Shown: piece after piece, positions 3,524-24,649 of the stretch
Numbering within the stretch: the stretch's first letter is position 1
How the letters are laid out: each line of letters opens with the position of its first letter
Assembly (NCBI RefSeq): GCF_030269665.1
Contig: NZ_BSTS01000011.1
Coordinates: 1-64,000 of the forward strand
Source: Actinomycetospora sp. NBRC 106375
GTDB lineage: Bacteria > Actinomycetota > Actinomycetes > Mycobacteriales > Pseudonocardiaceae
Direction of reading: 5' to 3'
DNA: 64,000 nucleotides
Notes under the pieces: model-generated
The model's database searches: none
What the model was told of the DNA's origin: nothing
Seen by the model: the letters and a program-made list of their open reading frames with translations, nothing else
Made by a program: the position numbers and the translations under genes

Positions 3524-4558
3524 ATGATCGACCCCGGTGCTGTGTCGAGCGCGGACGTGTCGGCCGCGGACGTGGCGGTCGCCGCGCTGCCGCTGCGGAC
3601 CCGGTTCCGCGGCATCACGGTGCGCGAGCTCGCGCTGGTCCGCGGCCCGGCCGGCTGGGGGGAGTTCTGCCCGTTCGTCGAGTACGACGACGCCGAGGCG
3701 GCCGCGTGGTGGCGCTGCGCGCGCGAGGCCGCGGAGGTGGGCTGGCCGGCGCCGGTACGCGACCGGGTCGAGGTCAACGTCACCGTTCCGGCCGTCGACC
3801 CGGAGCACGCCCACCGGATCGTGACCGAGGCCCGCTCGCGCACCGCGAAGGTCAAGGTCGCGGAGAAGGGCCCGGACGCGGCGCAGACGATGAGGGACGA
3901 CCTGGCGCGGGTGGAGGCCGTCCGGGACGCCCTCGGGCCCGGCGGCCGCGTGCGGGTGGACGCCAACGGCGGGTGGGACGTCGACGGCGCCGTCGCCGCG
4001 GTGACGGCGCTCGCGCGGGCCGCGGGCGGGCTGGAGTACGTCGAGCAGCCCTGCGCGACCGTGGAGGAGCTCGCCGCCGTGCGCCGGCGCGTCGACGTCC
4101 GCGTCGCCGCCGACGAGTCGATCCGTCGCGCCGAGGATCCGCTGCGCGTCGCGCGGGCGGAGGCCGCCGACGTCGCGGTGCTCAAGGTCGCGCCCCTGGG
4201 CGGCGTGCGGGCCGCGCTGCGGATGGCCGAGGTGATCGGGCTGCCCTGCGTGGTGTCGTCGGCCGTCGAGAGCTCGGTCGGGCTGGCCGCGGGGCTGGCG
4301 CTCGCCGGGGCGCTGCCCGAGCTGCCGTTCGCCTGCGGGCTCGGGACCGCCGACCTGCTCGCCGCCGACGTCGTCGCCACCCCGTTCCACCCCGTCGACG
4401 GGGTGCTGGCCGTACCGCCGAGCCCGCCCGCGCCCGACCCGTCCCTGCTCGCGCGGTACGCCGCCGAGCCCGCGACCCGCGACTGGTGGACCGCGCGGCT
4501 GCGCCGGGTACAAGCTCTCGCACGCGAGGACAGCGCCGTCCCGGACCGCCCGACGTGA
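3524..4558 (+). CDS. menC: o-succinylbenzoate synthase
   Basis: A 344-residue enolase-superfamily enzyme that dehydrates SHCHC to o-succinylbenzoate in the menaquinone pathway. The catalytic-lysine segment AKVKVAEKG, the metal-ligand segment RVRVDANGGWD, EYVEQPC, and the VAADES and VLKVAPLGG strands follow the order of MenC barrel ligands. It has the actinobacterial short-N-terminus form. The ATG at 3524 is fixed by the overlapping divergent promoter described with menE. cynS begins 13 bp after its stop and may be read on the same transcript, although cynS has its own ribosome site. Confidence 0.88.
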   Translation: MIDPGAVSSADVSAADVAVAALPLRTRFRGITVRELALVRGPAGWGEFCPFVEYDDAEAAAWWRCAREAAEVGWPAPVRDRVEVNVTVPAVDPEHAHRIVTEARSRTAKVKVAEKGPDAAQTMRDDLARVEAVRDALGPGGRVRVDANGGWDVDGAVAAVTALARAAGGLEYVEQPCATVEELAAVRRRVDVRVAADESIRRAEDPLRVARAEAADVAVLKVAPLGGVRAALRMAEVIGLPCVVSSAVESSVGLAAGLALAGALPELPFACGLGTADLLAADVVATPFHPVDGVLAVPPSPPAPDPSLLARYAAEPATRDWWTARLRRVQALAREDSAVPDRPT

Positions 4559-12316: not shown

Positions 12317-12699
12317 GCCCCGGGCTGCCGCGGACGCCCCGCGCTGACCCCGGCATGGCCGTGCACCTCTACGCGTCCGACGGGCGCTGGATCGCGTGGT
12401 ACCGGCCGGGCCTGCCGTACGTGTGGAGCACCCGCGACCGCTGGATCGGGTGGTTCCCGTGGTCCCACGAGGCGTCGCCCGAGCCGCGCGACGACGTCCT
12501 CGACCCCGACGACACGTACCTCGGCACGATCGTCGGCGACCGCCTCTTCGCACGGACCGCGCGCCGTCCACGTCCGATCCCGCGCCGGGTCGCCGAACCC
12601 CAGCGACCCGTGGGACCACCCGACGTAGACCGTGCGCAGGCCGTTCCTCCCCCGATCGGCTTCACCGACGTCGAGCTTCATCGACTTTTCGGCGACTGA
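12313..12699 (+). CDS. Unknown protein closing the nitrite operon
   Basis: A 128-residue protein whose start overlaps the chelatase stop by 4 bp, so it belongs to the nitrite operon. I do not recognise a named family with certainty. It contains aromatic repeats of the form GRWIAWYRPG, DRWIGWFPW and YLGTIVGDRLF, which resemble the short strands of four-fold beta-flower proteins (a Pfam-type domain of unknown role). The second half is Pro/Arg-rich and probably disordered. No signal peptide or membrane segment is visible. A role in nitrite reduction or siroheme handling is suggested only by position. Confidence 0.7.
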   Translation: MSPGLPRTPRADPGMAVHLYASDGRWIAWYRPGLPYVWSTRDRWIGWFPWSHEASPEPRDDVLDPDDTYLGTIVGDRLFARTARRPRPIPRRVAEPQRPVGPPDVDRAQAVPPPIGFTDVELHRLFGD

Positions 12700-12748
12700 G
12701 TGCCACCCCGATGTTTACCCCGCGTCACGATGGGGCGATGCTGTCCGC

Positions 12749-13003
12749 ATGGCCCGCGTGATCGGCACGATCGTGATATTGCTGGTGCTGTACGCGATCA
12801 TCTCCAACCCGCAGCAGGCGGCGTCGACGACACGCAGCGGCGCGTCCACGCTCGCCGACGCCGGGTCCTCGATCACGGTGTTCCTGTCGAACGTCGTCAA
12901 CGACGTCGCCGTCTCCACGGGCTCGTCGACGAGCAACGGCACCACGACCTATCCCCACGGCGGCATCGAGACGGGCGACGGCTCCACCCCCATCGACCGC
13001 TGA
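12749..13003 (+). CDS. Small single-pass membrane protein
   Basis: An 84-residue protein with one hydrophobic segment near the N-terminus (VIGTIVILLVLYAII, about residues 4-18), followed by a Ser/Thr/Gly-rich polar tail. It looks like a small anchored protein of the kind found next to many actinobacterial genes; I do not recognise a family. The ATG at 12749 is chosen because the membrane segment begins directly after it. It stands 49 bp after the nitrite operon and ends before a strong hairpin at 13038. Confidence 0.55.
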   Translation: MARVIGTIVILLVLYAIISNPQQAASTTRSGASTLADAGSSITVFLSNVVNDVAVSTGSSTSNGTTTYPHGGIETGDGSTPIDR

Positions 13004-13037
13004 CCGTCTTTCCGGGCGTCTGACCCGCGCCGGCGAT

Positions 13038-13058
13038 TCGAACAGCTGCGCTGTTCGA
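13038..13058 (+). terminator. Hairpin downstream of the small membrane gene
   Basis: TCGAACAGC (13038-13046) and GCTGTTCGA (13050-13058) form a perfect 9-bp stem with a 3-base loop. It abuts the outer end of the first 67-bp repeat and has no U-tract. It could end transcripts from both sides between the convergent genes at 13003 and 13137. Confidence 0.5.
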
Positions 13059-13122
13059 GCAATGCGGCTTTCCTGGCGTCTGACACCAGGATCGCCACAT
13101 TCTCGCCGGCACGACACGCCGG
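13056..13122 (+). repeat. 67-bp hairpin repeat, copy 1
   Basis: First of four copies of the same element (others at 14292, 20741 and 21250). It starts CGAGCAATGCGG, has TCCTGGCG facing ACCAGGA arms around 13071-13091, and ends CGACACGCCGG. It faces copy 2 as an inverted pair enclosing the AbiEi-like gene, with the CGAGCAATGCGG end outermost. Confidence 0.85.
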
Positions 13123-13136
13123 TGAGCGAAGCGGGC

Positions 13137-14117
13137 TCACGCCCCCCGCTGCCAGTCGTCCCGTTCCACGACCCGGATCTCCGGGGGAGGCAAGAGGGCG
13201 GCGACCGTGAGTCCGTCGTCGATGTCCTTCTCGACGCCGTCGGGATCGTCGCGCACCTGCGTGGGACGAGAGCCAACGATGGTCACGCCGGCGTCGCGCA
13301 GGGCGCGGCGACGTCGAGCGGTCGACTCGACCTGGTCCGCCGTCGCGAAGTGCGCGTCCACCGAATCGATCTCCCAGGCGAACCCGGTCTCTTCGACGTA
13401 GGCATCGACGACGCCGAGGAGGCGGCCGTTCCGATCGACGAGCCGGACGTTGAACTGCGCCGGCGGGAGGGCCCGGGACAGCCACCATTCCCGGGCGTCG
13501 AACTCGGCGGCCGAGTGCACACCGGCACGAACGGCGCGCAGGACCGCTCGCGGCGCCGCTGTCCCTCGTCGGCACCCGGCCTCGAGCTCCTCTTCCAGCT
13601 GCTCGATCTGGAGCATCCGCCGCTGCACGGGCTCGGCCACGAGGGCGGAGATACTGGTCGGATCGCGCCGGCGCCGCGCTTCGTCGAGGACAGCGCGCAC
13701 CAACGGCGCCACCGCGAGCCCGTCGCGCTCCACCGGGCGGGGTGGCCGGGTGGTGCGCTCCACCACGACGAACCCGACGCTGCGCACCTGGCGGTGCGCC
13801 GGGACGAGCACGTGAACGGTCTCGTCGTCCGGGAGGCGTCGGAGGCCGTGGTGGCGTGCCGCCGCCACTCCGGTCAGCATCGCGTCGGGGCCGCAGTACA
13901 CGAGAGCGGCGATCTCACGCTCGCGTCGGGTCGGCGTGCCGTTGTGCAGCAGCACGGTCCCCGGCAGGAGGCGTTGCCACGGACCGTCCTGACGACAGCG
14001 TCGGTAAGCCGTCGTCTCGTCGACGCCCAGTTCGACGAGGGTGCGGACAGCGATCACACCTTCGGTGCTCGCCTCCCGCAGCACACCGGGACTGACCGTC
14101 CACTCACCAGGTCGCAC
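13137..14117 (-). CDS. AbiEi antitoxin-like domain protein with nuclease-like C-terminus
   Basis: A 326-residue protein of a type common in Actinomycetota. The N-terminal 100 residues resemble the AbiEi winged-helix region of type IV toxin-antitoxin systems (REIAALVYCGPDAMLTGVAAARHHGL). The C-terminal part (NGRLLGVVDAYVEETGFAWEIDS, then RRRALRDAGVTIV) resembles DUF559/very-short-patch-type nuclease folds: D-x(n)-ExD is present. No AbiEii nucleotidyltransferase toxin is next to it. The GTG at 14117 has GACCCT 6 bases upstream (14129 to 14124), the leaderless pattern. The gene is enclosed by inverted copies of the 67-bp repeat, which may mark it as an acquired cassette. A defence role is possible but not shown. 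Confidence 0.72.
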   Translation of the reverse strand: MRPGEWTVSPGVLREASTEGVIAVRTLVELGVDETTAYRRCRQDGPWQRLLPGTVLLHNGTPTRREREIAALVYCGPDAMLTGVAAARHHGLRRLPDDETVHVLVPAHRQVRSVGFVVVERTTRPPRPVERDGLAVAPLVRAVLDEARRRRDPTSISALVAEPVQRRMLQIEQLEEELEAGCRRGTAAPRAVLRAVRAGVHSAAEFDAREWWLSRALPPAQFNVRLVDRNGRLLGVVDAYVEETGFAWEIDSVDAHFATADQVESTARRRRALRDAGVTIVGSRPTQVRDDPDGVEKDIDDGLTVAALLPPPEIRVVERDDWQRGA

Positions 14118-14291
14118 GCGGGAAGGGTCACCCGCCGTGCCCGGCCGTGCGAAGCGCGGCGGCCGCGCCTGTGGACGGTTTCGCGGACTGGGGACGCACG
14201 CGGGCCTTGGTGCGCCGTCCGCTCTTCTGTTCGGAGCAGCCCCGTCGTTCTGGGGGCGTTCCGTGGTCGAGGGAAGCGTGCCCCCTCTGTC

Positions 14292-14359
14292 CCGGCGTGT
14301 CGCGGAGCCGAGGATGTGGCGATTCTGGCGTCACGCGCCAGGAAAGCCGCATTGCTCGA
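14292..14359 (-). repeat. 67-bp hairpin repeat, copy 2 (inverted)
   Basis: Inverted relative to copy 1, reading CGAGCAATGCGG from 14358 leftward and ending CGACACGCCGG at 14292. It contains CTGGCGT facing ACGCGCCAG arms with a one-unit difference from the other copies. It lies upstream of the AbiEi-like gene, with its CGACACGCCGG end facing that gene. Confidence 0.85.
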
Positions 14360-14593
14360 ACCTCCCGAGTCACGGCGCTGAAACACATCGCGGAGGACGA
14401 CTCGGCCTCGTAGTCACGAGGAAACACTTCGGAAATCGCCGGTTGGTGTGCTGAGTCGCAGCGAGGAACCGGATCGCACGGTCCCGCATCCGGGGTCGGC
14501 GAGGACCCCGCCGTCCCCGAACTCTCCTTCCCCAGGGGCTGCCCGTCGCATCGCGGGCACCGCCGCACACCAGCATCCCGCGAGGAGCACAGC
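14360..14593 (+). other. Leader region of the Nit1C-like cluster
   Basis: No gene is supported. GGGGTC (14492-14497) and GACCCC (14504-14509) form a stem with a 6-base loop, and TGCCCG/CGGGCA arms around 14547-14566 form another. GAGGAG precedes the ATG at 14594. No T-tract follows the hairpins, so a terminator is unlikely. I cannot assign a riboswitch class or a clear operator. Confidence 0.4.
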
Positions 14594-15112
14594 ATGACGA
14601 GCACCGAGCTCTCCGACGTCGAGAAGAAGAGCCTCGAGGAGATCCCGCACCCCTCGCTGCCCGAGGGCTCGAGCATCTACGGCGGGACGAAGGTCTTCCC
14701 CGACCTGCAGGCCGAGGGCGGCGAGACCTACTTCACGCTGGTCCACGGCATCGCGCACGAGTCGTCGGTCAGCTTCGTCGCGGTCCTCCAGGCCACGCGC
14801 GCGCTGCGCAAGGGCTTCGAGTCCGCGATGTACTTCTACGGCCCCGGCTCGCTGAACTGCCTGGCCACGCGCGGGTTCCCCACCACCGGCACCTCGGCGT
14901 TCCCCGGTGAGCACAACATCAACGACCAGCTCAAGACGTTCATGAGCGAGGGCGGCAAGGTCTACTGCTGCCGCTTCGGCCTGTCGCTGCACGGCGCCCG
15001 CGAGGAGGACCTCATCGAGGGCGTCATCCCGACGCACCCGCTCGACGTCCAGGACGCGCTCATCTACTACGCGCGCAAGGGCGCGATCATCAACTCGACC
15101 TACCAGCTCTGA
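14594..15112 (+). CDS. MSMEG_0572/Sll0783-family nitrogen starvation protein (NitB-like)
   Basis: A 172-residue cytoplasmic protein matching the MSMEG_0572/Sll0783 family, the marker protein of Nit1C clusters. Recognisable parts are SSIYGGTKVFPDLQAEGGET (about residues 28-47), FESAMYFYGPGSLNC and EGVIPTHPLDVQDALIYYAR. The biochemical role is unknown; in cyanobacteria the family member is induced by nitrogen starvation. An AGGAG site lies upstream of the ATG. It heads a run of six same-strand genes; the radical SAM gene starts 73 bp later with its own strong ribosome site. In Pseudomonas a Nit1C cluster has been linked to growth on cyanide as nitrogen source. Confidence 0.9.
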   Translation: MTSTELSDVEKKSLEEIPHPSLPEGSSIYGGTKVFPDLQAEGGETYFTLVHGIAHESSVSFVAVLQATRALRKGFESAMYFYGPGSLNCLATRGFPTTGTSAFPGEHNINDQLKTFMSEGGKVYCCRFGLSLHGAREEDLIEGVIPTHPLDVQDALIYYARKGAIINSTYQL

Positions 15113-15185
15113 CGTGACGCGGCCGGCGCGGGGACACCCGCGCCGGCCGTGACCACCCCCGATCCAGAGCACAGGAGGTCAGCCG

Positions 15186-16322
15186 ATGTCCCCGCAGCCC
15201 GACCTCGGGTTGTCCGCCCGCTCCGAAGTGGCCGTCCGCGGCGTCGCGCTCGACCTCCCGTCCGACACTCCGGGCACCACGACAGACCTCGGTGCCTCCA
15301 TCCCCCTGCGCCGCCCCGGTGGCGCCGGCCCGTCCGCCGACGGCCACGTGCTCGTCGACGGCCTCAAGACGGCGATCCCGATCAACCCGGCGAGCCCCTA
15401 CCGGCTGCGCGACGGCCGGCTCGTGCGCACCGGCCCCGACGGGGGGATCACCGACCTGGGCGTCGAGGTCGACACCGTCGCCCGCCCCGCCTTCTACGAC
15501 CTCACCACCGCCGACGGCGTCCCCTACGAGAAGCTCGCCCGCCTCCACGGCAACGACGTCCTCGCCACGACCGCCGTCCAGACCTGCGTGCGCTACGGCG
15601 AGCAGGATCGCTGCCGCTTCTGCGCCATCGAGCAGTCGCTGCGCAGTGGCGCCACCACCGCCGTGAAGACCCCCGACCAGCTCGCCGAGGTCGCCGAGGC
15701 CGCGGTCCGCCTCGACGGCGTCAAGCAGATGGTGCTGACCACCGGCACGTCCAACGGCCGCGACCGCGGCGCCCGCCACCTCGCCCGCTGCGTGCGCGCG
15801 ATCAAGGCGGCGGTGCCCGACCTGCCGATCCAGGTGCAGTGCGAGCCGCCCGCCCCCGAGGACCTGGCCGCGCTGCAGGAGCTGAAGGACGCCGGCGCGG
15901 ACGCCGTCGGCATCCACGTCGAGTCGCTCGACGACGCCGTGCGCGCCCGCTGGATGCCCGGCAAGGCGACCGTCCCGCTGTCCCAGTACCGGCTCGCGTG
16001 GGACGAGAGCGTGCGGCTCTTCGGCGCGAACGCCGTGTCGACCTACCTCATCGTCGGCCTGGGCGAGGACCCCGACGAGCTCGTCGCCGGCGCGGCCGAC
16101 CTCGTCGACCGCGGCGTCTACCCCTTCGTCGTGCCGTACCGCCCGATCCCGGGCACGCTCGCCTTCGCCGACGGCGACCCCGCGCCGGACCCGGAGCTGC
16201 TCGCCGAGGTCACCGCCCGCGTCGCGAAGATCCTCCAGGCCGCCGGCATGCGCGGCGCCGACCAGGCCGCGGGCTGCGCGGCGTGCGGCGCCTGCTCCGC
16301 CCTGTCCGCGGCGGGGGGCTGA
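15186..16322 (+). CDS. Radical SAM protein, MSMEG_0568 family (NitD-like)
   Basis: A 378-residue radical SAM protein. The cluster cysteines are Cys134, Cys143 and Cys146, giving CX8CX2C instead of the usual CX3CX2C. Downstream barrel motifs include MVLTTGTSNGRDRG and the GIHVESLDD strand. A second cysteine group GCAACGAC (Cys364, 367, 370) at the very C-terminus could bind another Fe-S cluster or assist. The substrate is not known for any member of the family. The ATG at 15186 has AGGAGG 7 bases upstream. The GNAT-AIR fusion begins 4 bp after the stop, so the two are coupled. Confidence 0.9.
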   Translation: MSPQPDLGLSARSEVAVRGVALDLPSDTPGTTTDLGASIPLRRPGGAGPSADGHVLVDGLKTAIPINPASPYRLRDGRLVRTGPDGGITDLGVEVDTVARPAFYDLTTADGVPYEKLARLHGNDVLATTAVQTCVRYGEQDRCRFCAIEQSLRSGATTAVKTPDQLAEVAEAAVRLDGVKQMVLTTGTSNGRDRGARHLARCVRAIKAAVPDLPIQVQCEPPAPEDLAALQELKDAGADAVGIHVESLDDAVRARWMPGKATVPLSQYRLAWDESVRLFGANAVSTYLIVGLGEDPDELVAGAADLVDRGVYPFVVPYRPIPGTLAFADGDPAPDPELLAEVTARVAKILQAAGMRGADQAAGCAACGACSALSAAGG

Positions 16323-16326
16323 GCCG

Positions 16327-17850
16327 GTGTCGCTGCTCGACGACCACTCACTCGGCGAGATGGGCGCCGCCGACGAGATCCTCGGCGGCCGCACCCGCCG
16401 GCAGGCCCGCGACGTCACCATCGCCGAGGCCCCGGCCATCGACGCGCGCCACCCCGACGTCGTCGCCTACCGGGCGCTGCGGCGCGCGGTGTTCGTCGAC
16501 GAGCAGGGGCTCTTCCGCGACGACGGTGTCGGCGACCTCGACGAGCACGACCACGACCCGCGCGCGATCGTCCTGGTCGCCCGCGACGCGACCGGCGAGG
16601 TCCTGGGCGGCGTCCGCCTCGCGCCCGTCGACGCCGACACCGCCCGGCCCGACCTGGGGTGGTGGACGGGCAGCCGTCTCGTCGTCGCGCCGCTGGCCCG
16701 CCGGCGGGCGAGCGTCCGGGTCGGCGCGGCCCTGGTGCGCGCGGCCTGTGCCCGCGCCGAGGCCGCCGGCGCGCTGCGGTTCGAGGCCGACGTCCAGGCC
16801 GCGAACGAGACGCTCTTCCGCCGCCTGGGCTGGCAGCGCGTCCGCGACACGACGGTCGCCGGCCGCCCCCACGTGCACGTGCGCTGGCCCGTGGGGCGCT
16901 TCGCGGCGCTGATCGCCGCGACCAAGGCCCCGCTGGGCGAGCTCGTCGCGGGCATGGCCGGGACCGGGTTGCACGTCGGCGACGACGGCGCCCCCGTTCC
17001 CGGGACCGACATCGTCGCGGCCTGTGACGCGATCCTGCCGGCGATGGTGGAGCGCGACCCGGAGTGGGCCGGCTGGTGCGGGGTGCTGGTCAACGTCAAC
17101 GACCTCGCCGCCATGGGCGCCGCGCCCACCGCCCTGCTCGACGCCGTCGGTGCCCGCGACGCCTCGTTCGCCCACCGCGTCCTCACCGGCCTGCGCGCCG
17201 CGGCCGACGCCTACGGCGTGCCGGTCGTCGGCGGGCACACGCAGCTCGAGGTCCCCGCGTCCCTCGCCGTCACCGCCCTCGGGCGGACACCGGCGCCCGT
17301 CCCCGCCGCCGGCGGCCGACCGGGCATGGCCGTGCGGCTGACCGCCGACCTCGGCGGCACGTGGCGCCCCGGCTACACCGGGCGGCAGTGGGACTCGACG
17401 TCGACGCGCACGCCCGCCGAGCTGCGGGCGATGGTCGCCGCGATCGGACCGGACGAGCCGCATCGGCCGGCCGCGGCCAAGGACGTGTCGATGGCCGGGG
17501 TCGTCGGCACCCTCGGCATGCTCGCCGAGGCCTCGGGCACGGGCGCGGTGCTCGACGTCGCCGCCGTGCCGCGCCCGGCCGGCGCGACCGTCGCCGACTG
17601 GCTGACCTGTTTCCCCGGCTTCGCGCTGCTCACCGCCGACGCGCCGGACGCCCCGGCCCCGGCGGCCGGCCCCGCGACGAGCGCGGTGTGCGGGGAGCTG
17701 ACCGCGAGCACCGGCGTCGCGCTGCGCTGGCCCGACGGCGAGATCACCGAGGCCGTCGCCAGTGGTGTCACGGGCCTGGGCGCGGCGCCGCGCCGCGGAG
17801 CCGGCGCGGGCGACGTGAGGGCGGCAACGACTGGAGGGATCCACCCATGA
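16327..17850 (+). CDS. GNAT acetyltransferase-AIR synthase-like fusion (MSMEG_0567 family)
   Basis: A 507-residue two-domain protein. Residues about 28-190 are a GNAT domain (RAVFVDEQGLF, then the acetyl-CoA region GSRLVVAPLARRRASVRVG). Residues about 200-480 resemble PurM/AIR synthase ATP-binding domains: WAGWCGVLVNVNDLAAMGA, VVGGHTQLEVPASLAVTALG and AAAKDVSMAGVVGTLGML correspond to the conserved PurM blocks. This arrangement is that of MSMEG_0567; in other Nit1C clusters the two halves are separate genes (nitE and nitF). It would combine acyl transfer and ATP-dependent activation in one chain, on an unknown substrate. GTG start 4 bp after the radical SAM stop; the 3' end overlaps the nitrilase start. 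Confidence 0.88.
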   Translation: MSLLDDHSLGEMGAADEILGGRTRRQARDVTIAEAPAIDARHPDVVAYRALRRAVFVDEQGLFRDDGVGDLDEHDHDPRAIVLVARDATGEVLGGVRLAPVDADTARPDLGWWTGSRLVVAPLARRRASVRVGAALVRAACARAEAAGALRFEADVQAANETLFRRLGWQRVRDTTVAGRPHVHVRWPVGRFAALIAATKAPLGELVAGMAGTGLHVGDDGAPVPGTDIVAACDAILPAMVERDPEWAGWCGVLVNVNDLAAMGAAPTALLDAVGARDASFAHRVLTGLRAAADAYGVPVVGGHTQLEVPASLAVTALGRTPAPVPAAGGRPGMAVRLTADLGGTWRPGYTGRQWDSTSTRTPAELRAMVAAIGPDEPHRPAAAKDVSMAGVVGTLGMLAEASGTGAVLDVAAVPRPAGATVADWLTCFPGFALLTADAPDAPAPAAGPATSAVCGELTASTGVALRWPDGEITEAVASGVTGLGAAPRRGAGAGDVRAATTGGIHP

Positions 17851-18728
17851 CCGTCAGGACGTTCGCGGCCGCGGCCGCGGGCTTCGGCCGCGACCTCGAC
17901 GAGGACTTCGCCACGATCGAGGCCCTGCTCGGGCGGGCCCGGGCGGCGGGGGCGGACCTGCTCGCGCTGCCCGAGGCCGCGCTCGGGGGCTACCTGTCGT
18001 CGCTGCACGACGATGCGGCCACGATGGATTCGGCTGACGTCCCGCCGCAGCTCGAGATCGACGGCCCCGAGGTGCGCCGGCTCGTCGCGCTCGCCGGCGA
18101 CACGGTCGTCACGGCCGGCTTCTGCGAGCGGGGCGACACGGCGTCGGGGGGCCTGCCCTACAACAGCTGCGTGGCCGTGACCGGCGACGGCGTGCTCGGC
18201 CACCACCGCAAGGTCCACCAGCCGCTGAACGAGAACAACTCCTACGCGGCGGGCGACCGCTTCGCCGCGTTCGACACGCCGATCGGCCGGCTCGGCATGA
18301 TGATCTGCTACGATAAGGCGTTCCCCGAGGCCGCGCGCGCCCTGGCGGTCGACGGGGCGCGGATCGTGGTGTGCATGTCGGCCTGGCCTGCGTCGCGCAC
18401 CAACCAGGCGCCGGTCCTCGCCGACGACCGCTGGACCCGGCGCTTCGACCTGTTCGACCGGGCCCGCGCGCTGGAGAACCAGATTGTCTGGGTGTCGGCG
18501 AACCAGGCCGGGACGTTCGGCGACATGCGTCTCGTCGCCAGCGCCAAGATCGTCGACCCGGGCGGGGAGGTCCTCGACACCACCGGCACGGACGCTGGAC
18601 TCGCCGTCGCCTCCGTCGACGTCGACGACGCCGTCGAGGCGGCCCGGCGGTTCATGGGGCACCTGCGCGACCGGCGCCCGGCGTCCTACGACCTCGCCCC
18701 CGTGCCCGTCGCGGCGCGGGCCGGCTAG
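17847..18728 (+). CDS. Nitrilase-superfamily hydrolase of the Nit1C cluster (NitC-like)
   Basis: A 293-residue carbon-nitrogen hydrolase with an intact Glu-Lys-Cys triad: Glu43 (LALPEAALGGY), Lys122 (GHHRKVHQP) and Cys154 (GMMICYDKAF). Superfamily members hydrolyse nitriles, cyanide or amides. In the Nit1C cluster of Pseudomonas the equivalent enzyme has been tied to cyanide breakdown to ammonia; transferring that to this protein is inference, and an aliphatic amidase is the main alternative. The ATG overlaps the fusion gene stop by 4 bp and follows GGAGGG. Its TAG stop forms the first half of a TAGGGT hexamer that may be the promoter of the next gene, a catalytically altered paralogue. Confidence 0.88.
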   Translation: MTVRTFAAAAAGFGRDLDEDFATIEALLGRARAAGADLLALPEAALGGYLSSLHDDAATMDSADVPPQLEIDGPEVRRLVALAGDTVVTAGFCERGDTASGGLPYNSCVAVTGDGVLGHHRKVHQPLNENNSYAAGDRFAAFDTPIGRLGMMICYDKAFPEAARALAVDGARIVVCMSAWPASRTNQAPVLADDRWTRRFDLFDRARALENQIVWVSANQAGTFGDMRLVASAKIVDPGGEVLDTTGTDAGLAVASVDVDDAVEAARRFMGHLRDRRPASYDLAPVPVAARAG

Positions 18729-18731
18729 GGT
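18726..18731 (+). promoter_or_regulatory. Leaderless -10 element TAGGGT overlapping the nitrilase stop codon
   Basis: TAGGGT begins with the TAG stop of the first nitrilase and lies 6 bases before the GTG of the second. The second gene may therefore be transcribed separately from the rest of the cluster. Confidence 0.45.
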
Positions 18732-18737
18732 CCGCCG

Positions 18738-19586
18738 GTGGTCCGCCTCGCCGCCGCCGCGGCCCACTTCACGCGCGACATCGGGTTCGACCTCGACCGC
18801 ATCAAGATGATCATCGCGCACGCCCGGGACGCCGGGGTCGAGATGCTCGCGCTGCCCGACGGCGCGCTCGGGGGCTACCTCACCGACCTGCGCCACCCCG
18901 ACATCGAGTGCCTGCCCCCGCTGCTGGAGCCCAACGGCGACGAGGTCCGGTCGGTGATCGACATCGCCGGCGACATGGTCGTCTGCCTCGGGTACTGCGA
19001 GCTGGGGCCCGAGGACGACACCGACGAGGGCGCCGGGCCCGCGCGCTACGACGCCGCCGTGTGCCTGTCCGGCGACGGGATCCTCGGCCGGCACCGCAAG
19101 GTGCACCTGCCGGCCGGGATCGCCCCGCTGTTCCGGGCCGGTGACGGGTTCGCGGCGTTCGACACGCCGGTGGGCCGGATGGGGCTGCTCATCGACCACG
19201 ACAAGACCTTCCCGGAGGCGTCGCGGGCGCTCGCGGTGGACGGCGCGGAGATCATCGCGTGCCTGTCGGCCTGGCCCACGTCCCTGACGAACCGGGCGCC
19301 GCGGATGGCGCAGGACCGCCAGGCGCGGCTGTTCGACCTCTACGACCAGGCGCGGGCGGCCGAGAACCAGGTGGTGTGGCTGTCGTCGAACCAGAGCGGA
19401 CGCAACGGCGCGCTGCACTTCCTCGGCCGCGCGAAGGTGGTCGGACCGGGCGGGGAGATCCTGGCGCGGACCTGGTCGAAAGGTGGCCTGGCCGTCGCCG
19501 AGGTCGACCTGCCCGGCGCCGTCGGCGCGGCGCGCGCCGTCCTGCACCACCTGACCGAGCGGCGACCCGAGACCTACGGGCCGTGA
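18738..19586 (+). CDS. Nitrilase-fold paralogue lacking the catalytic cysteine
   Basis: A 282-residue paralogue of the gene before it, alignable over its whole length, yet the triad is altered. The catalytic Glu is Asp41 (LALPDGALGGY), Lys121 is kept (GRHRKVHLP), and the nucleophile Cys is Asp153 (LLIDHDKTFPE, codon GAC at 19194-19196). The loop after Lys also differs, PAGIAPLFRAGD replacing the Glu-containing segment of the first enzyme. A cysteine-thioester mechanism is impossible, so it is either a binding or regulatory partner of the active nitrilase or an enzyme with a new mechanism. The reading frame is intact and the fold is well conserved, which argues against decay. GTG start supported by the TAGGGT hexamer. 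Confidence 0.85.
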   Translation: MVRLAAAAAHFTRDIGFDLDRIKMIIAHARDAGVEMLALPDGALGGYLTDLRHPDIECLPPLLEPNGDEVRSVIDIAGDMVVCLGYCELGPEDDTDEGAGPARYDAAVCLSGDGILGRHRKVHLPAGIAPLFRAGDGFAAFDTPVGRMGLLIDHDKTFPEASRALAVDGAEIIACLSAWPTSLTNRAPRMAQDRQARLFDLYDQARAAENQVVWLSSNQSGRNGALHFLGRAKVVGPGGEILARTWSKGGLAVAEVDLPGAVGAARAVLHHLTERRPETYGP

Positions 19587-19590
19587 CCCC

Positions 19591-20703
19591 GTGAAGATCG
19601 CCCTGCTGACCTACTCGACCAAGCCGCGCGGCGGCGTCGTCCACACCCTCGCGCTGGCCGAGGCCTTCGCCAGGGCGCGCCACGACGTCACCGTGTGGGC
19701 GCTGGCCCGCGGCGGGGACACGGGGTTCTTCCGGCCGGTGCGCGACGCGGTGACCGTGCGGCTCGTGCCGGTGCCCGAGATCGAGGGGGAGTCGGTCGGG
19801 GACCGGATCCTGCGCTCGATCGCGCTGCTGGCCGAGGCCCTCGGTGCGTTCGAGGGCTCGTTCGACGTGGTGCACGCGCAGGACTGCCTGACGGCGAACG
19901 CGGTCGGGCGGGCGCGCGGCTACGACGGTCTCTGGCGCACCGTGCACCACCTCGACCGGTTCACCACACCCGAGCTCGCGGCCTGTCACGAGCGCGCGAT
20001 CGTCGAGCCGGCGGCGCTGGTGTGCGTGTCGGAGGCCGTGGCCGGCGAGGTGCGGTCCGGGTGGGACCGGTCGCCGGCGGTGATCGGCAACGGGGTCGAC
20101 GCGGCGCGGTTCGCGGCGGCGGCGTCCTCGGGAGCGGGGGAGCCGTGGCGCGCGGAGTACGGGCGCTACGTGCTCGCGGTCGGCGGGATCGAGCCGCGCA
20201 AGGGGACCCTCGAGCTCGTCGAGGCGATGGCGCTCCTCCCGGACGTCCCATTGCTGATCGCGGGCGGGGACACGCTGTTCGACTACCGCCCGTACCGCGC
20301 CGAGGTCTTCGCCCGTTCCGACGAGCTGGGCGTCGCGCCGGTGGTGCTCGGGCCGGTCGACGACGGGGAGCTGCCCGGTCTGGTGGCGGGCGCCTCGGTC
20401 TTCGCGTTCCCGTCGACGAAGGAGGGGTTCGGGCTCGCGGCGATGGAGGCCCTCGCGGCCGGGGTCCCGCTGGTGACCCGCGACCTGCCCGTGCTGCGCG
20501 AGGTGTTCGCCGGCGCGGCGCGCTTCGCCGACGGGCCCGAGGGGTTCGCGCGGGAGATCGGCCGCGTGCTCGAGGGAGCCGATCCGGACCTCGACCCCGC
20601 CCACGCGACCGTCGGCCGCGCCCTCGCCGCCGCGCACACCTGGGACGCGGCGGCCGCCGCGCACCTCGACCTCTACCGGCGAGGCCTCGCGTCAGGCGGC
20701 TGA
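19591..20703 (+). CDS. MSMEG_0565-family glycosyltransferase
   Basis: A 370-residue GT-B fold glycosyltransferase (family 4 type) matching the MSMEG_0565 family found at the end of mycobacterial Nit1C clusters. Visible parts are the N-terminal KIALLTYSTKPRGGVVHTLA loop, VLAVGGIEPRKGTLELVEAM (start of the C-terminal domain, about residue 193) and the donor-site FPSTKEGFGLAAMEALAAG with its E-x7-E pattern. It would transfer a sugar from a nucleotide donor to an unknown acceptor. GTG start 4 bp after the preceding stop. Its presence suggests the cluster makes or modifies a small molecule besides freeing ammonia. Confidence 0.88.
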   Translation: MKIALLTYSTKPRGGVVHTLALAEAFARARHDVTVWALARGGDTGFFRPVRDAVTVRLVPVPEIEGESVGDRILRSIALLAEALGAFEGSFDVVHAQDCLTANAVGRARGYDGLWRTVHHLDRFTTPELAACHERAIVEPAALVCVSEAVAGEVRSGWDRSPAVIGNGVDAARFAAAASSGAGEPWRAEYGRYVLAVGGIEPRKGTLELVEAMALLPDVPLLIAGGDTLFDYRPYRAEVFARSDELGVAPVVLGPVDDGELPGLVAGASVFAFPSTKEGFGLAAMEALAAGVPLVTRDLPVLREVFAGAARFADGPEGFAREIGRVLEGADPDLDPAHATVGRALAAAHTWDAAAAAHLDLYRRGLASGG

Positions 20704-20740
20704 GACCCGGGGTGGTGTCGGCGTCGGGGCAGCGTGTGTA

Positions 20741-20807
20741 CGAGCAATGCGGCTTTCCTGGCGCCTGACGCCAGGATCGCCACATCCTCGCGAGCGCGAC
20801 ACGCCGA
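20741..20807 (+). repeat. 67-bp hairpin repeat, copy 3
   Basis: Matches copy 1 over nearly its full length. It contains TCCTGGCGCC facing GACGCCAGGA at 20756-20776. It lies between the glycosyltransferase and the convergent alkyltransferase-like gene and faces copy 4 in inverted orientation. Confidence 0.88.
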
Positions 20808-20904
20808 GAACCGCTGAGGCGCGGTCGGTGTCAGCGTGGCGTCCACCGGCGGCACGCAGCGAAGCGGAGCTGCCGCGACGGAGGCCGAGTACTGACGTTC
20901 AGCA

Positions 20905-21204
20905 TCAGGAAATCCACCCGCTCGCCACGCGGTGGTTCGCGAGCACGACACGCCCGTCGCGGATCTCGACGCCCTCGGCGCGCAGGCGGGCGTGCTGCTC
21001 GTCGAGGATCTGGGGGGCGCTGGAGCCGTCCGCGCGCAGCACGCGGTGCCACGGCAGGTCGGCCCCGTCCTCGCTCATCACCCGCCCGACGAGGCGTGCC
21101 GAGGCCTCGCCGACCTCCCGGGCCACATCGCCGTAGGTCGCGACGGAGCCTTCGGGGATCGCGGCCACCGCCGCCCGGATCCGCTCGTGCCGCGCCTCGT
21201 CCAC
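20905..21204 (-). CDS. Alkyltransferase-like protein (ATL, MGMT family)
   Basis: A 99-residue MGMT-family protein with the DNA-binding part only. The active-site PCHR of O6-methylguanine methyltransferases is replaced by PWHR (DLPWHRVLRADG), so it cannot accept the alkyl group. ATL proteins bind O6-alkylguanine and hand the lesion to nucleotide excision repair. The ASARLVGRVM and PEGSVATYGDVAREVG helices are well conserved. The frame is open up to 21318, but that upstream part would be translated from the 67-bp repeat, so the GTG at 21204 is chosen; it gives the usual ATL length. The gene is enclosed by inverted repeat copies 3 and 4. Confidence 0.85.
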   Translation of the reverse strand: MDEARHERIRAAVAAIPEGSVATYGDVAREVGEASARLVGRVMSEDGADLPWHRVLRADGSSAPQILDEQHARLRAEGVEIRDGRVVLANHRVASGWIS

Positions 21205-21249
21205 ACCGACGAGTCCAACACGGGAGTTCCGGGCCCGGAGCGCCGGTCC

Positions 21250-21315
21250 CGGCGTGTCGCGCGCGCGAGGATGTGGCGATCCTGGCGTCTGACGCCAGGA
21301 AAGCCGCATTGCTCG
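21250..21315 (-). repeat. 67-bp hairpin repeat, copy 4 (inverted)
   Basis: The cleanest copy. Its central TCCTGGCGTC/GACGCCAGGA arms (21280-21300) are perfectly complementary around one base. Immediately outside lies a perfect hairpin CGCACAC-CCC-GTGTGCG (21314-21330). It is inverted relative to copy 3 across the alkyltransferase-like gene. Confidence 0.88.
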
Positions 21316-21391
21316 CACACCCCGTGTGCGTGGGCGTCAGTCGCGACCCAGGTCCACGGCGGTGTCGGGGGGACGTGGTGAAGTGGTCGCC

Positions 21392-24300
21392 GTGAGTTCC
21401 CCGACGCGTGCCGACCGGGCGCCGGAGCTGCGGCGCGCCGCGGCGTGGGTGCCGGGCGAGCTGGTGCTCGACGAGGCCGCACGCCGGGTCGTCGAGCACG
21501 ACGCCGGGTTCCTCCGGGTGCTGGGTGGTCCGGGCACGGGCAAGACGACGCTGCTCGCCGAGCGGGTGGCGCGCCTGCTGCACGCCGAGCCGGACGCCCG
21601 CCCGCTCGTGCTCGTCGGCGACCGCCGGGCCGCGGCGGGCCTGCGGGAACGGATCGGGGCGCGCCGCCGCGCGCTCGCCGGCGGCACGGAGAGCGCCCGG
21701 GCGGCCGCCGAACCCCTGGTGCGCAGCGTGCACTCCTACGCCTTCGCCGTGCTCCGCCGCCACGCCGCGCGCCGCGGCGAGGCCCCGCCGCGGCTGCTGC
21801 CCGGCGCCCAGCAGGACGCGATGGTCCGCGAGCTGCTCGCGGGCGAGGTCGCCGGGGCCGGGGTGCCCTCGGGCTGGCCGCTGCGCATGCGCCCGGCCCT
21901 CGAGGCGCCCGCCTTCGCCGGCGAGGTGCGCGATCTGCTGCTGCGGGCCGCCGAGCGGGGGCTGGGGCCGAAGGAGCTCACCGATCTCGGCAAGCGCTTC
22001 GGCGTGCCGGCGTGGCTCGCCGCCGGCCGCTTCTACCGCACGTATGAGGAGGTCACGCTCCTGCGCGCGGCGGCCGGGTCGGCCAACCCCCTCGCGAGCG
22101 CGCCGCCGCTCGACGCCGCCGAGCTCGTCGCCGCGGTGCTCGACGCCTTCGTCGCGGACCCCGAGCTGCTCGAGGCCGAGCGCGCGACGGTCCGCCACCT
22201 CGTCGTCGACGACGTGCAGGACATGGATCCCCAGCAGGTCGAGCTGGCCCGCGCGCTCGGCGAGGCCGCCGACGACTGGGTGCTCGCCGGCGACCCCGAC
22301 TCCTCGGTGCTCGGGTTCCGCGGCGCCGACCCGGCGCTGCTGCGCGACGCCGACCCGGGCGGGCTCGCGACCGTCGTCCTGCGCACCGACCACCGCAGCC
22401 GCCCGGTCCTGCGCGACGCCGTCGCCCGCGTCGTCGCGGCCCTGCCCGGCGCCGGTCCGGGGCGGACCCGAGCGGCGCCGCAGGACGATCAGGACGATCA
22501 GGACGACCCCGGCCGGCTGACCGTCGACGTCTACGCCACGCCGGGACGCCAGGCCGCCGCGGTCGCCGACCGGCTGCGCCGCGCCCACCTCACGGACGGC
22601 GTCCCGTGGTCGCGGATGGCGGTGCTCGTGCGCTCGGTGTCCGGCTCGCTCCCGCCGCTGCGCCGGGCGCTGCTCGCGGCCGGGGTCCCGCTGGCCGTGC
22701 CCGCGGACGACACCCCGCTCGCGGCCCTGCCCGCGGTCGCCCCGCTGCTGACGGTGCTGCGCTGCGCCGCCGACCCGCCGCGCCTCGACGCCGACACGGC
22801 CCTCGCGCTGCTCGCCTCCCCGCTCGGCGGGGCGGACCCCTTGGCGGTGCGCCGGCTGCGCCGCGGGCTGCTCCGGCGCCACGAGGCCGGCGGCGGCGCG
22901 GCGGACACGCCGAGCGACGCCCTCATCGTCGACGCCCTGCTCGACCACGTCGAGGAGGCGAAGAACCCCCTGGCGCTGCTGAGCACCTCGGAGGCCGCCC
23001 CGCTGGCCCGTGTCGGCGAGCTGCTCGCCGCGGCCGCGCACGCCATCCGCGACGGCGCCTCGGTCCCCGACGTGCTCTGGGCGGTGTGGGACCGCAGCGG
23101 TCTGCAACGGCGCTGGGTCGCCGCGAGCGAGCGCGGCGGCGTCACCGGGGCCCAGGCCGACCGCGACCTCGACGCCGTCGTCGCCCTGGTCGAGCGGGCC
23201 GCCCGCTACGTCGAGGACCTGCCCGGCGGCACGGTCGCGGGCTTCGTCGCCCAGGCCGACGACCAGCGCATCCGCGCCGACACCCTCGCCCCCCGCGCGC
23301 CCGACGGCGAGGCGGTCGCCCTGCTCACCGCCCACGCCTCGCGCGGCCGCGAGTGGGACGTCGTGATCATCCCCGACGTCCAGGAGGGCGCCTGGCCCGA
23401 CCTGCGGCGGCGCGGCACCCTGCTCGGGGTCGAGCGACTGGTCGACGTGCTGGCCGGCGTGCCGGACGACCCGGCGGTCTCCGGGCAGGCGCCCCTGCTC
23501 GCCGAGGAGCGCCGGCTTTTCGCGGTCGCGCTGTCGCGGGCCCGGCGCGCCGCGCACGTCAGCGCCGTCGAGGCGGAGGACGTCACGCCGTCGCGGTTCC
23601 TCGACGACGTCGACGGCGGCCCCGTCACCGACGACCCCGCGGAGGCACACCGCCCGCGCAGCCGCCCCGGCCGCGCGCTGGTGCTCGCCGAGCTGGTCGG
23701 GGAGCTGCGCCGGGCCGTCACCGACCCCGACACCACGCCCGAGCGTCGGGAACGCGCCGCCGAGGGGCTCGCCCGCCTCGCCGACGCCGGCGTGCCGGGG
23801 GCCGACCCCGACGACTGGTACGGCCTTCTCGGCCCGTCCACCGACGCCCCGCTGCGGCCGGCCGGCTCGCCGGTCGCGGTCAGCCCGAGCGCGGTCGAGA
23901 CGATCCTGACCTGCCCGCTGCGCTGGGCGCTGCAGACCCATGGCGGCGACGACACCGATTCGCTCGCGTCGGTCACCGGGTCGCTGGTCCACGCGCTCGT
24001 GCAGCGCGCCGCGGAGGGCGCGGGGGAGCGCGAGCTGCAGGAGGCCCTCGACGTCGCGTGGGCCTCGGTCGACGCGGGCGCGCCGTGGTTCTCGCGCCGG
24101 GAGCTCGCCAACACCCGGCGGATGCTGGGGTCGTTCCTCGCCTGGCGCGAGCAGACGCGGGCGCACCTCACCGAGGCGGCGGTGGAGCGCGAGCTCGAGG
24201 TCGCCGTGGCCGAGGGGGTGCGCGTGCGGGGCCGCGTCGACCGCCTCGAGATCGACCCGCACGGACGCCCGGTGATCATCGACGTGAAGACGGGCAAGAC

Positions 24301-24649
24301 GCCGATCTCGAAGGCCGACGCGCAGCTTCACCCCCAGCTCGCCGTCTACCAGCTCGCGACGGCGCTCGGCGCGTTCTCCGAGGTCCTCGCCGGGCCGGAC
24401 CGCACCGACGCGCGCAGCGCCCCCGGCGGGGCGCGCCTGGTCTACCTCTCCCGCGCCGGGGGAGCGGCCAAGGAGCGGGCCCAGGAGCCCCTCGACGACG
24501 AGGGCCTGGCGCTGTGGCGCGACGCCGTGGCGACGGCCGCCCGCGCCACCGAGGGCCCGGGGTTCCTCGGCCGCGAGAACGACACCTGCGACCGCTGCCC
24601 CGTCCGCACGGCCTGCCCGGTGCACACCTCGGGGAGGCAGGTGCCGTGA
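21392..24649 (+). CDS. adnA: AdnA-like helicase-nuclease subunit
   Basis: About 1085 residues. It has a UvrD-like helicase module (Walker A VLGGPGTGKTTLLAER; degenerate motif II VVDDVQDMD; FRGADPALL; TAHASRGREWDVVIIPDVQE; LFAVALSRARRA) and a C-terminal RecB-like nuclease (IDVKTGKTPISKADAQLHPQ). A cysteine before the nuclease (LTCPLRWAL) and three at the end (CDRCPVRTACP) form the expected [4Fe-4S] site. With AdnB it should make the double-strand-break resecting machine of mycobacteria. The GTG at 21392 has a weak hexamer 7 bases upstream; GTG 21383 is an alternative. A 9-bp tandem repeat (QDDQDDQDD) sits mid-gene. adnB overlaps by 4 bp. Confidence 0.87.
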   Translation: MSSPTRADRAPELRRAAAWVPGELVLDEAARRVVEHDAGFLRVLGGPGTGKTTLLAERVARLLHAEPDARPLVLVGDRRAAAGLRERIGARRRALAGGTESARAAAEPLVRSVHSYAFAVLRRHAARRGEAPPRLLPGAQQDAMVRELLAGEVAGAGVPSGWPLRMRPALEAPAFAGEVRDLLLRAAERGLGPKELTDLGKRFGVPAWLAAGRFYRTYEEVTLLRAAAGSANPLASAPPLDAAELVAAVLDAFVADPELLEAERATVRHLVVDDVQDMDPQQVELARALGEAADDWVLAGDPDSSVLGFRGADPALLRDADPGGLATVVLRTDHRSRPVLRDAVARVVAALPGAGPGRTRAAPQDDQDDQDDPGRLTVDVYATPGRQAAAVADRLRRAHLTDGVPWSRMAVLVRSVSGSLPPLRRALLAAGVPLAVPADDTPLAALPAVAPLLTVLRCAADPPRLDADTALALLASPLGGADPLAVRRLRRGLLRRHEAGGGAADTPSDALIVDALLDHVEEAKNPLALLSTSEAAPLARVGELLAAAAHAIRDGASVPDVLWAVWDRSGLQRRWVAASERGGVTGAQADRDLDAVVALVERAARYVEDLPGGTVAGFVAQADDQRIRADTLAPRAPDGEAVALLTAHASRGREWDVVIIPDVQEGAWPDLRRRGTLLGVERLVDVLAGVPDDPAVSGQAPLLAEERRLFAVALSRARRAAHVSAVEAEDVTPSRFLDDVDGGPVTDDPAEAHRPRSRPGRALVLAELVGELRRAVTDPDTTPERRERAAEGLARLADAGVPGADPDDWYGLLGPSTDAPLRPAGSPVAVSPSAVETILTCPLRWALQTHGGDDTDSLASVTGSLVHALVQRAAEGAGERELQEALDVAWASVDAGAPWFSRRELANTRRMLGSFLAWREQTRAHLTEAAVERELEVAVAEGVRVRGRVDRLEIDPHGRPVIIDVKTGKTPISKADAQLHPQLAVYQLATALGAFSEVLAGPDRTDARSAPGGARLVYLSRAGGAAKERAQEPLDDEGLALWRDAVATAARATEGPGFLGRENDTCDRCPVRTACPVHTSGRQVP
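22481..22507 (+). repeat. Three 9-bp tandem units in adnA
   Basis: CAGGACGAT, CAGGACGAT and CAGGACGAC encode QDDQDDQDD in a linker between helicase motifs. Copy-number change would keep the frame. Confidence 0.85.

What the first reader, a model, noticed from the sequence alone, without database searches (positions are those of the whole stretch)
13056..21315. 67-bp structured repeat present as two inverted pairs, each enclosing one gene
Four copies (13056, 14292, 20741, 21250) share about 67 bases with a central hairpin (TCCTGGCGTC/GACGCCAGGA). They form two inverted pairs with the same end (CGACACGCCG) facing inward. One pair encloses an AbiEi-like gene, the other an alkyltransferase-like DNA repair gene. 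Interrupting the Nit1C-adnA neighbourhood with single genes of defence or repair type between identical inverted ends looks like a cassette system or a non-autonomous transposon family. As a simpler reading, they are bidirectional terminators that spread in the genome.
Basis: partly seen in the sequence, partly recalled or inferred. Interest (0 to 1): 0.78.

Follow-up and report, generated by a model that had tools for sequence, protein, structure and literature searches.

The report
REP-like palindromes in mirrored gene-flanking pairs
A soil-type bacterium carries about ninety copies of a short hairpin-forming DNA repeat that mostly sits just behind genes, sometimes as mirror-image pairs around one gene; the two genes in question did not arrive with this repeat, and each species keeps its own copies alike, which makes it a useful natural case of repeats evolving together.

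Summary
In detail: four ~70-bp copies, two inverted pairs, CGACACGCCG end inward. The genome holds 87 copies. The repeat was found in 10 of 297 genomes of the family, all of one genus, probably Actinomycetospora.

It is not a gene cassette in the simple sense. The AbiEi-like and alkyltransferase-like genes stand at the same place in 8 of 8 near-group genomes examined, with or without this repeat. 59 of 87 copies are single, and 65 of 77 intergenic copies follow a stop codon in sense orientation. No Y1 (REP-type) transposase was found in 18 genomes. These are REP-like palindromes, probably terminators or insulators (inferred).

Two things go beyond 'ordinary REP'. (1) Inverted pairs exceed what the stop-codon rule predicts (11 of 15 close neighbours; 31% predicted). 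A related second palindrome holds the same inverted arrangement in several genomes lacking this one. One enclosed Hsp20 gene is flipped in two of five genomes. (2) Copies at the same locus in different species are no more alike than copies at different loci (0.860 vs 0.859), against 0.921 within a genome; only edges remember orthology: concerted evolution.

The parts
13052..13121 (+). family-A palindrome, copy 1, 3' of an 84-aa gene and 15 bp from the AbiEi-like stop codon
14292..14361 (-). family-A palindrome, copy 2, in the divergent region between the AbiEi-like gene and the first Nit1C-type gene (not behind a stop codon)
20737..20806 (+). family-A palindrome, copy 3, between the convergent glycosyltransferase and alkyltransferase-like genes
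21250..21319 (-). family-A palindrome, copy 4, in the divergent region between the alkyltransferase-like gene and adnA (not behind a stop codon)
21315..21329 (.). small outer hairpin GCACACCCCGTGTGC at the outer end of copy 4; a perfect 5-6 bp stem at this position is present in 17 of 87 copies (shuffled expectation 0.4)
20828..20920 (+). family-B-like palindrome remnant right of copy 3 (GTGTCAGCGTGGCGTCCAC..., interrupted); identified by eye, not by the motif scan
13137..14117 (-). enclosed gene 1, AbiEi-like, 326 aa (my gene finder prefers a later start, 13955)
20905..21204 (-). enclosed gene 2, alkyltransferase-like, 99 aa
14594..15112 (+). right neighbour of pair 1, first gene of the Nit1C-type cluster (name from the finding and recall)
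19591..20703 (+). left neighbour of pair 2, glycosyltransferase-like gene (name from recall, not searched)
21383..24649 (+). right neighbour of pair 2, AdnA-like helicase-nuclease (name from the finding and recall, not searched)

Best explanation
The repeat (family A) is a clade-specific, REP/BIME-like imperfect palindrome of about 70-85 bp. It sits mostly just behind stop codons in sense orientation, often between convergent genes (shown). As RNA or single-stranded DNA it folds into one long hairpin with conserved internal loops (shown by folding, three of four window copies better than shuffles). It most likely ends or buffers transcription running out of the flanking genes (inferred; no T run follows, so not a textbook intrinsic terminator). 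It shares sites with a related palindrome, family B, which follows A in tandem in part of the copies. Around some single genes the units are mirrored, A+ B+ gene B- A-, so the same end faces inward. Several such pairs are shared by several species, and one enclosed gene has flipped between them, as recombination between inverted repeats would do. The copies within a genome are homogenised by gene conversion or a similar copying process (pattern shown, mechanism inferred). The two enclosed genes of this window were not carried in by family A.
For: 87 true copies of 89 pattern hits. Left end at a gene's 3' end in 65 of 77 intergenic copies, median distance 22 bp; 35 of the 75 with both neighbours lie between convergent genes, against 41 of 222 adjacent gene pairs in 12 control stretches. 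Hairpin z-scores of -4.3, -0.9, -3.6 and -4.6 for the four window copies. No Y1 transposase in 18 of 18. Genes kept where the repeat is not found. B core (<=2 of 13 mismatches) within 200 nt behind A on the same strand in 21 of 87, in front of it in 3 of 87, control windows 11 of 1188. Concerted evolution: 43 copies at pair loci in four species, orthologs 0.860 (50 comparisons), same species 0.921 (221), neither 0.859 (632); nearest match same species 35.2 of 43, ortholog 0.25 of 43. Repeated on single sites taken at regular steps: 0.856 / 0.919 / 0.857 (16 copies). Edges keep an orthology signal (flank 0.69 vs 0.61, 0 of 500 permutations; positions 40-41 0.80 vs 0.70, p 0.014), the left core does not (p 0.94). 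Variants are shuffled among G000 copies: 52 of 55 site pairs show all four combinations. Hsp20 gene with its upstream region is inverted in G008 and G016 relative to G000, G003 and G015.
Against: The gene-end rule does not account for the pair excess (11 of 15 vs 31% predicted, P 8e-4) nor for the clustering (15 close neighbours vs 2.9; largest of 300 simulations 9). Of the 12 intergenic copies not behind a stop codon, 8 are in close pairs, against 17 of 65 others (P 0.015): pair membership, not termination, seems to set their place and orientation; copies 2 and 4 of the window are among them. No terminator-like site with a T run in 12500-22000. Copy 2 of the window does not fold better than its shuffles (z -0.9). 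The spacer's orthology signal is not significant (p 0.12), nor is that of the right 18 core positions (p 0.07). Single sites are poorly shared (7 of 24 site-genome combinations), which also fits turnover by insertion and loss. No transcription data exist here.
Confidence: 0.66

Rival explanations
1. Single-gene cassettes bounded by terminal inverted repeats (a mobile-insertion-cassette-like or non-autonomous transposon family), moved by a transposase supplied elsewhere; solo copies are empty MITE-like derivatives.
For: Inverted facing pairs exceed the gene-end expectation, and no close pair faces away (0 of 15 in G000; 0 of 19 in three relatives). At S5 the flanking genes abut without P450 gene or palindrome in the 2 of 4 distant-group regions fetched that keep both flanking genes. 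At S1 no AbiEi-like gene is found in 4 of 4 distant-group regions (best tblastn E 0.31). At S6, genome G015 has neither enclosed gene nor palindrome, only about 20 bp between the flanking genes, while other genomes have both.
Against: The four enclosed genes compared keep their place with or without A among the 8 near-group genomes examined: AbiEi-like 8 of 8, alkyltransferase-like 8 of 8 (plus 4 of 4 distant), methyltransferase 8 of 8, P450 7 of 8. No clear target-site duplication. 59 of 87 copies are single. No Y1 transposase; other transposase classes were not searched.
Confidence: 0.12
2. Independent insertions: an unidentified transposase puts the species' current master copy into the same preferred spots (behind stop codons, next to family B) in each species, so orthologous sites look alike in place but not in sequence; no gene conversion needed.
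For: Strong site preference; B cores behind A; species dialects, with core motif ATCG in 35 of 43 G008 and 33 of 43 G016 copies against TTTC or TTTG in 36 of 39 G004 copies (hand counts of the rows) and T at its first position in 84 of 87 G000 copies; at single sites only 7 of 24 site-genome combinations are occupied.
Against: At the 14 G000 copies of seven pair loci, G008, G016 and G004 hold a copy in 29 of 42 combinations; these loci were chosen for G000 pairs, so this is not a random sample. Edges of copies keep an orthology signal, expected if the copy is old and only its core is overwritten. No Y1 transposase found; other transposase classes were not searched.
Confidence: 0.2
3. The element is a binding site or structured 3'-UTR RNA read by a trans-acting factor; selection by a species-specific factor, not DNA copying, keeps copies alike within a genome and drives a dialect shift.
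For: Invariant internal-loop and box positions next to highly variable spacer positions. One 5' stem pair reads A-T in most G000 and G004 copies and G-C in most G008 and G016 copies (by eye).
Against: No factor identified. A frequent variant breaks the central stem (position 12 is G in 20 of 87). 8 of 18 genus genomes show no copy.
Confidence: 0.15

Closest known systems
REP / BIME / REPIN elements with RAYT transposases (E. coli, Pseudomonas)
   Same: short extragenic palindromes, mostly downstream of and between convergent or same-direction genes, inverted pairs common; evolution by gene conversion raised as a question in 1988 (title of Higgins et al. seen in the reference list of PMC3733652)
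   Different: unit is ~70-85 bp, not 20-40; the paired units lie 0.3-2.7 kb apart, mostly with genes between; no Y1/RAYT transposase found; copies at shared loci have lost orthology in their core
CGTC-tagged REPs without a dedicated transposase (PMC3733652, passages read)
   Same: palindromes, head-to-head dimers predominant, intergenic, no transposase association
   Different: 8-9 bp stems with CCA tails, not this unit; term searches of that paper's main text found no 'actinobacteria', 'actinomyc', 'streptomyces' or 'mycobacterium'
Mobile insertion cassettes (IS231-MIC type; search listing only; definition recalled)
   Same: single passenger genes between inverted repeats without transposase
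   Different: there the gene moves with its repeats; here the genes persist without family A and most copies stand alone

Membership tests
REP-like extragenic palindromes | many dispersed intergenic copies of a short hairpin-forming palindrome | tested here: met
   87 copies, 77 of them intergenic; folding (one of four window copies not better than shuffles)
REP-like extragenic palindromes | location downstream of and between convergent or same-direction genes | tested here: met
   65 of 77 intergenic copies behind a stop codon
REP/REPIN with RAYT | a Y1 (RAYT/TnpA-REP) transposase in the genome | tested here: not met
   PF01797: 0 of 18 genus genomes; 5 of 14 control genomes ring
REP/REPIN with RAYT | 20-40 bp unit with GTAG tag, doublets with short spacer | tested here: not met
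   unit alignment; spacing of close neighbours 303-2746 bp
Inverted-repeat gene cassette (MIC-like) | gene present only together with its flanking repeats; unit-sized insertion | tested here: not met
   for family A: genes kept where A is not found; for family B around the S1, S5 and S6 genes this was not resolved
Inverted-repeat gene cassette (MIC-like) | target-site duplication | tested here: inconclusive
   no clear enrichment in a scan of flank offsets (best 4 of 82 against 0.8 expected among many offsets tried); copies are old and boundaries soft
Intrinsic terminator | hairpin followed by a T run | tested here: not met
   0 terminator-like sites in 12500-22000
Intrinsic terminator | transcript 3' ends at the element | not testable with these tools
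   needs RNA data

The most novel reading that the evidence does not exclude
Mirrored pairs of these palindromes (A+ B+ gene B- A-) are a maintained architecture in their own right. They form small fenced islands at gene junctions into which single accessory genes arrive, are exchanged or flip, with the fences kept recombination-competent by continual gene conversion among all copies in the genome: a transposase-free, recombination-driven single-gene docking system.
Probability: 0.13. Interest if true: 0.78.

Novelty: new variant of a known kind. Interest (0 to 1): 0.47.

Why it matters
Gene conversion among dispersed REP-like repeats was raised long ago. Here the orthology-loss test can be run cleanly: same loci, several species, core homogenised and edges not. 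The mirrored pairs around single genes, enriched beyond the gene-end rule and linked to one observed gene flip, make it testable whether short palindromes insulate genes or shape where new genes settle. My paper searches (an open-access library, listings only except the two papers opened) listed no description of this repeat; that is not proof of absence from print.

Tried and rejected
Rfam scan of 12500-22000: one weak match, to a microRNA family far below its gathering score and outside the repeats. RAYT/Y1 transposase: none in 18 genomes; other transposase classes were not searched. Target-site duplications: no clear signal. Promoter and terminator consensus scan of 12500-22000: none. That the facing-pair excess follows from the gene-end rule alone: I first believed this (note); the simulation spoke against it. 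Pair mates being more alike than other copies: in G000 close neighbours 0.936 vs 0.912 (P 0.004), but not in the four-species pair-locus set (0.923 vs 0.921), so I do not rely on it. Family-B counting by a loose motif (<=3 mismatches plus stem) gave 46 background hits in 240 kb of control, so only hits with 0-1 mismatch (1 of those 46) were trusted; some B assignments (2 mismatches, e.g. G007 at S1 right, G003 at S3) are weaker. A strict B pattern of 26 bases found 1 to 25 places in 9 of 18 genus genomes, all in the near group, and none in G004. A background test of whether enclosed genes are lineage-specific more often than other genes was prepared and not run. S3 in the distant group is not informative on its left side: the left gene there is not an ortholog. 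At S5, 2 of the 4 distant-group regions fetched have a different left neighbour and were not used. G012 and G014 of the near group were not examined at the pair loci.

Rows dropped: 2 of 89 pattern hits (C2:27612, C12:54898) because they lack the rest of the unit; 2 of the 87 kept have a rearranged right half. 12 of the 89 hits fall inside genes of my own gene finder (the 2 dropped ones and 10 copies; some probably gene-finder errors) and are outside the 77 intergenic rows. In one search copies with a left score under 40 were left out (weak or chimeric copies of G015, G001, G003; the chimeric G008 copy at S4 was not detected at all by the scan). Single site 7 of 9 was set aside as not comparable. 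In one search, 7 of the 18 facing pairs of relatives rest on copies that I added; many are orthologous to pairs in G000 and so not independent.
Full report
OBSERVATION. The four copies are real: 13052-13121 (+), 14292-14361 (-), 20737-20806 (+), 21250-21319 (-), as two inverted pairs with CGACACGCCG inward. The window belongs to genome G000, 6.79 Mb in 104 contigs. A 19-mer pattern finds 89 places there, against 1 for the reversed control; 87 carry the unit (two of these with a rearranged right half). The consensus is CACGGGGTGTKCGAG CRATGCGGCTTTSCTGGCG TSTGAC GCCAGGATCGCCACA NN CTCG N6 CGACACGCCG (its leftmost bases only loosely kept), with near-invariant blocks beside highly variable spacer positions.

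WHERE IT OCCURS. Among 18 genus genomes the right half of the unit is found in 10 (78, 51, 47, 38, 22, 11, 9, 5, 2 and 1 places) and in none of the other 8. By the DNA identities the ten look like the nearer group ('near') and the eight like a more distant one ('distant'); I built no tree. Among 297 genomes of the family, these 18 included, only the ten have it. An exact 18-base pattern over the named collection of 84,980 species gave 20 stretches: 4 in Actinomycetospora cinnamomea and the rest scattered over unrelated organisms, probably chance; that collection may leave out the window's own genome and very near ones. G004's contig lengths equal those of A. cinnamomea DSM 45771, so the genus is probably Actinomycetospora.

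RELATION TO GENES. With a home-made gene finder 77 of the 89 hits are intergenic, all of them true copies. In 65 of 77 the left end faces the 3' end of a gene in sense orientation (median distance 22 bp, 53 of 65 within 60 bp). Of the 75 with both neighbours, 35 lie between convergent genes, against 41 of 222 adjacent gene pairs in twelve 20-kb control stretches.

PAIRS. 15 adjacent copies lie within 3 kb: 11 face each other as in the finding, 4 are on the same strand, 0 face away. 59 of 87 copies have no neighbour within 3 kb. A placement simulation that respects the gene-end rule predicts 31% facing pairs and 2.9 close neighbours (largest of 300 runs: 9), so both the orientation (P 8e-4) and the clustering exceed it. 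The three richest relatives show the same bias (18 facing, 1 same-strand, 0 facing away; 7 of the 18 rest on copies that I added, and many are orthologous to G000's). Of the 12 intergenic copies not behind a stop codon, 8 belong to close pairs, against 17 of 65 of the rest (P 0.015); copies 2 and 4 of this window are of this kind.

GENES DO NOT TRAVEL WITH FAMILY A. I fetched seven loci of G000 pairs (S1 to S7; S1 and S2 are the window's) in relatives and mapped genes and repeats. Eight of the ten near genomes were examined, G000 included. S1, the AbiEi-like gene: orthologs in 8 of 8 (60-76% identity to G000), repeat A on both sides in 3 (G000, G008, G004) and not detected on either in 5. S2, the alkyltransferase-like gene: 8 of 8, and in 4 of 4 distant genomes within two genes of adnA. 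S4 methyltransferase 8 of 8 and S5 P450 7 of 8 likewise. So family A came and went around resident genes. In several genomes without A, a related palindrome, family B (GTGTCAGCSTGGCGTCCACGCTGACACTCAACGTCAGGAAAGCCGCCACGATCAC type), stands in the same inverted arrangement (hits with 0-1 mismatch on both sides at S1 in G016, G015, G001 and G003, and at S2, S5 and S6 in G001). Where both are present on both sides the order is mirrored, A outside and B inside (G000 at S4, G016 at S5). B cores follow A on the same strand in 21 of 87 copies and precede it in 3. Repeat-free sites exist too: for example G004 at S7, and at sampled single sites 2 and 5 all three relatives lack a copy.

WHAT IS LEFT OF THE CASSETTE IDEA. 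At S5 both flanking genes are kept and abut, with neither P450 gene nor palindrome, in 2 of the 4 distant regions fetched; the other two have another left neighbour. No AbiEi-like gene is found in 4 of 4 distant S1 regions (best tblastn E 0.31). At S6 the enclosed genes vary between near genomes, and G015 has neither enclosed gene nor palindrome, only about 20 bp between the flanking genes. This would fit genes arriving with an older (B) pair, or genes arriving between two existing gene-end palindromes, or simple deletion; I cannot separate these. Against a cassette stands the alkyltransferase-like gene, which is older than the repeat. At S3 the Hsp20 gene with its upstream region is inverted in G008 and G016 relative to G000, G003 and G015, between palindromes: the expected product of recombination between inverted repeats.

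CONCERTED EVOLUTION. For 43 copies at the pair loci in G000, G008, G016 and G004, the 50-nt core is 0.860 identical between orthologs (50 comparisons), 0.859 between different loci of different species (632) and 0.921 within a species (221). The nearest match is in the same species for 35.2 of 43 and is the ortholog for 0.25 of 43 (ties shared). A separate sample of single sites (37 candidates, every fourth taken, 9 sites, one not comparable) gives 0.856, 0.857 and 0.919 from 16 copies, with 7 of 24 site-genome combinations occupied. The edges do keep orthology: flank positions -8 to -5 0.69 vs 0.61 (0 of 500 permutations as large), positions 40-41 0.80 vs 0.70 (p 0.014); spacer 0.57 vs 0.52 (p 0.12) and right core (p 0.07) are not significant; left core none (p 0.94). 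Variants are reshuffled among G000 copies (52 of 55 site pairs with all four combinations). Old copies whose cores are overwritten fit best; repeated insertion into the same spots is the main rival.

STRUCTURE AND FUNCTION. Three of four window copies fold far better than shuffles as RNA (z -4.3, -3.6, -4.6), one does not (-0.9). Between species one pair of the 5' stem changes from A-T to G-C on both sides (by eye). No T run follows. Termination or insulation is therefore an inference from place and shape.

COMPARISON. REPs lie downstream of genes, favour convergent and same-direction neighbours and form head-to-head dimers, and one REP superfamily has no known transposase (PMC3733652, passages read). 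REPINs are inverted REP doublets tied to RAYTs (PMC3116915, outline and abstract). Evolution of REPs by gene conversion was raised by Higgins and colleagues in 1988 (title seen in a reference list). The present family works like REPs but fails the RAYT, unit-length and short-spacer tests.

VERDICT. A new, clade-specific variant of REP-like palindromes with conserved mirrored pairs and clear concerted evolution; not a family-A gene cassette.

Noticed in passing
L091 4167-4700 (G000), L175 3077-3583 (G008), L172 3102-3605 (G016): An Hsp20-family gene with its upstream region is inverted in two of five related genomes, between palindromic repeats.
   Followed up: partly
L179 about 480-580 (G008); also seen in L178 (G015, reverse strand), L198 about 325-415 (G016) and L081 about 4085-4125 (G000): A third module (CAGCACGCCGATAGGG type) sits in the centre of some A and B palindromes, so the families look modular.
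   Followed up: no
L214 (G016), just behind the gene end near position 1730: A near-perfect palindromic variant of the unit (both arms read CGAG/ATGCGGCATCGCCGGCG) stands where G000 has a normal copy.
   Followed up: no
window 13137-14117: AbiEi-like protein whose predicted neighbours are not partner-like (no AbiEii search was made); its coding score is low (0.14 per aa), which suggests horizontal origin.
   Followed up: partly
L064 about 4000-4400 (G000 C1:553068 and C1:553392): Two same-strand copies 324 bp apart with similar flanks, a probable local tandem duplication.
   Followed up: no
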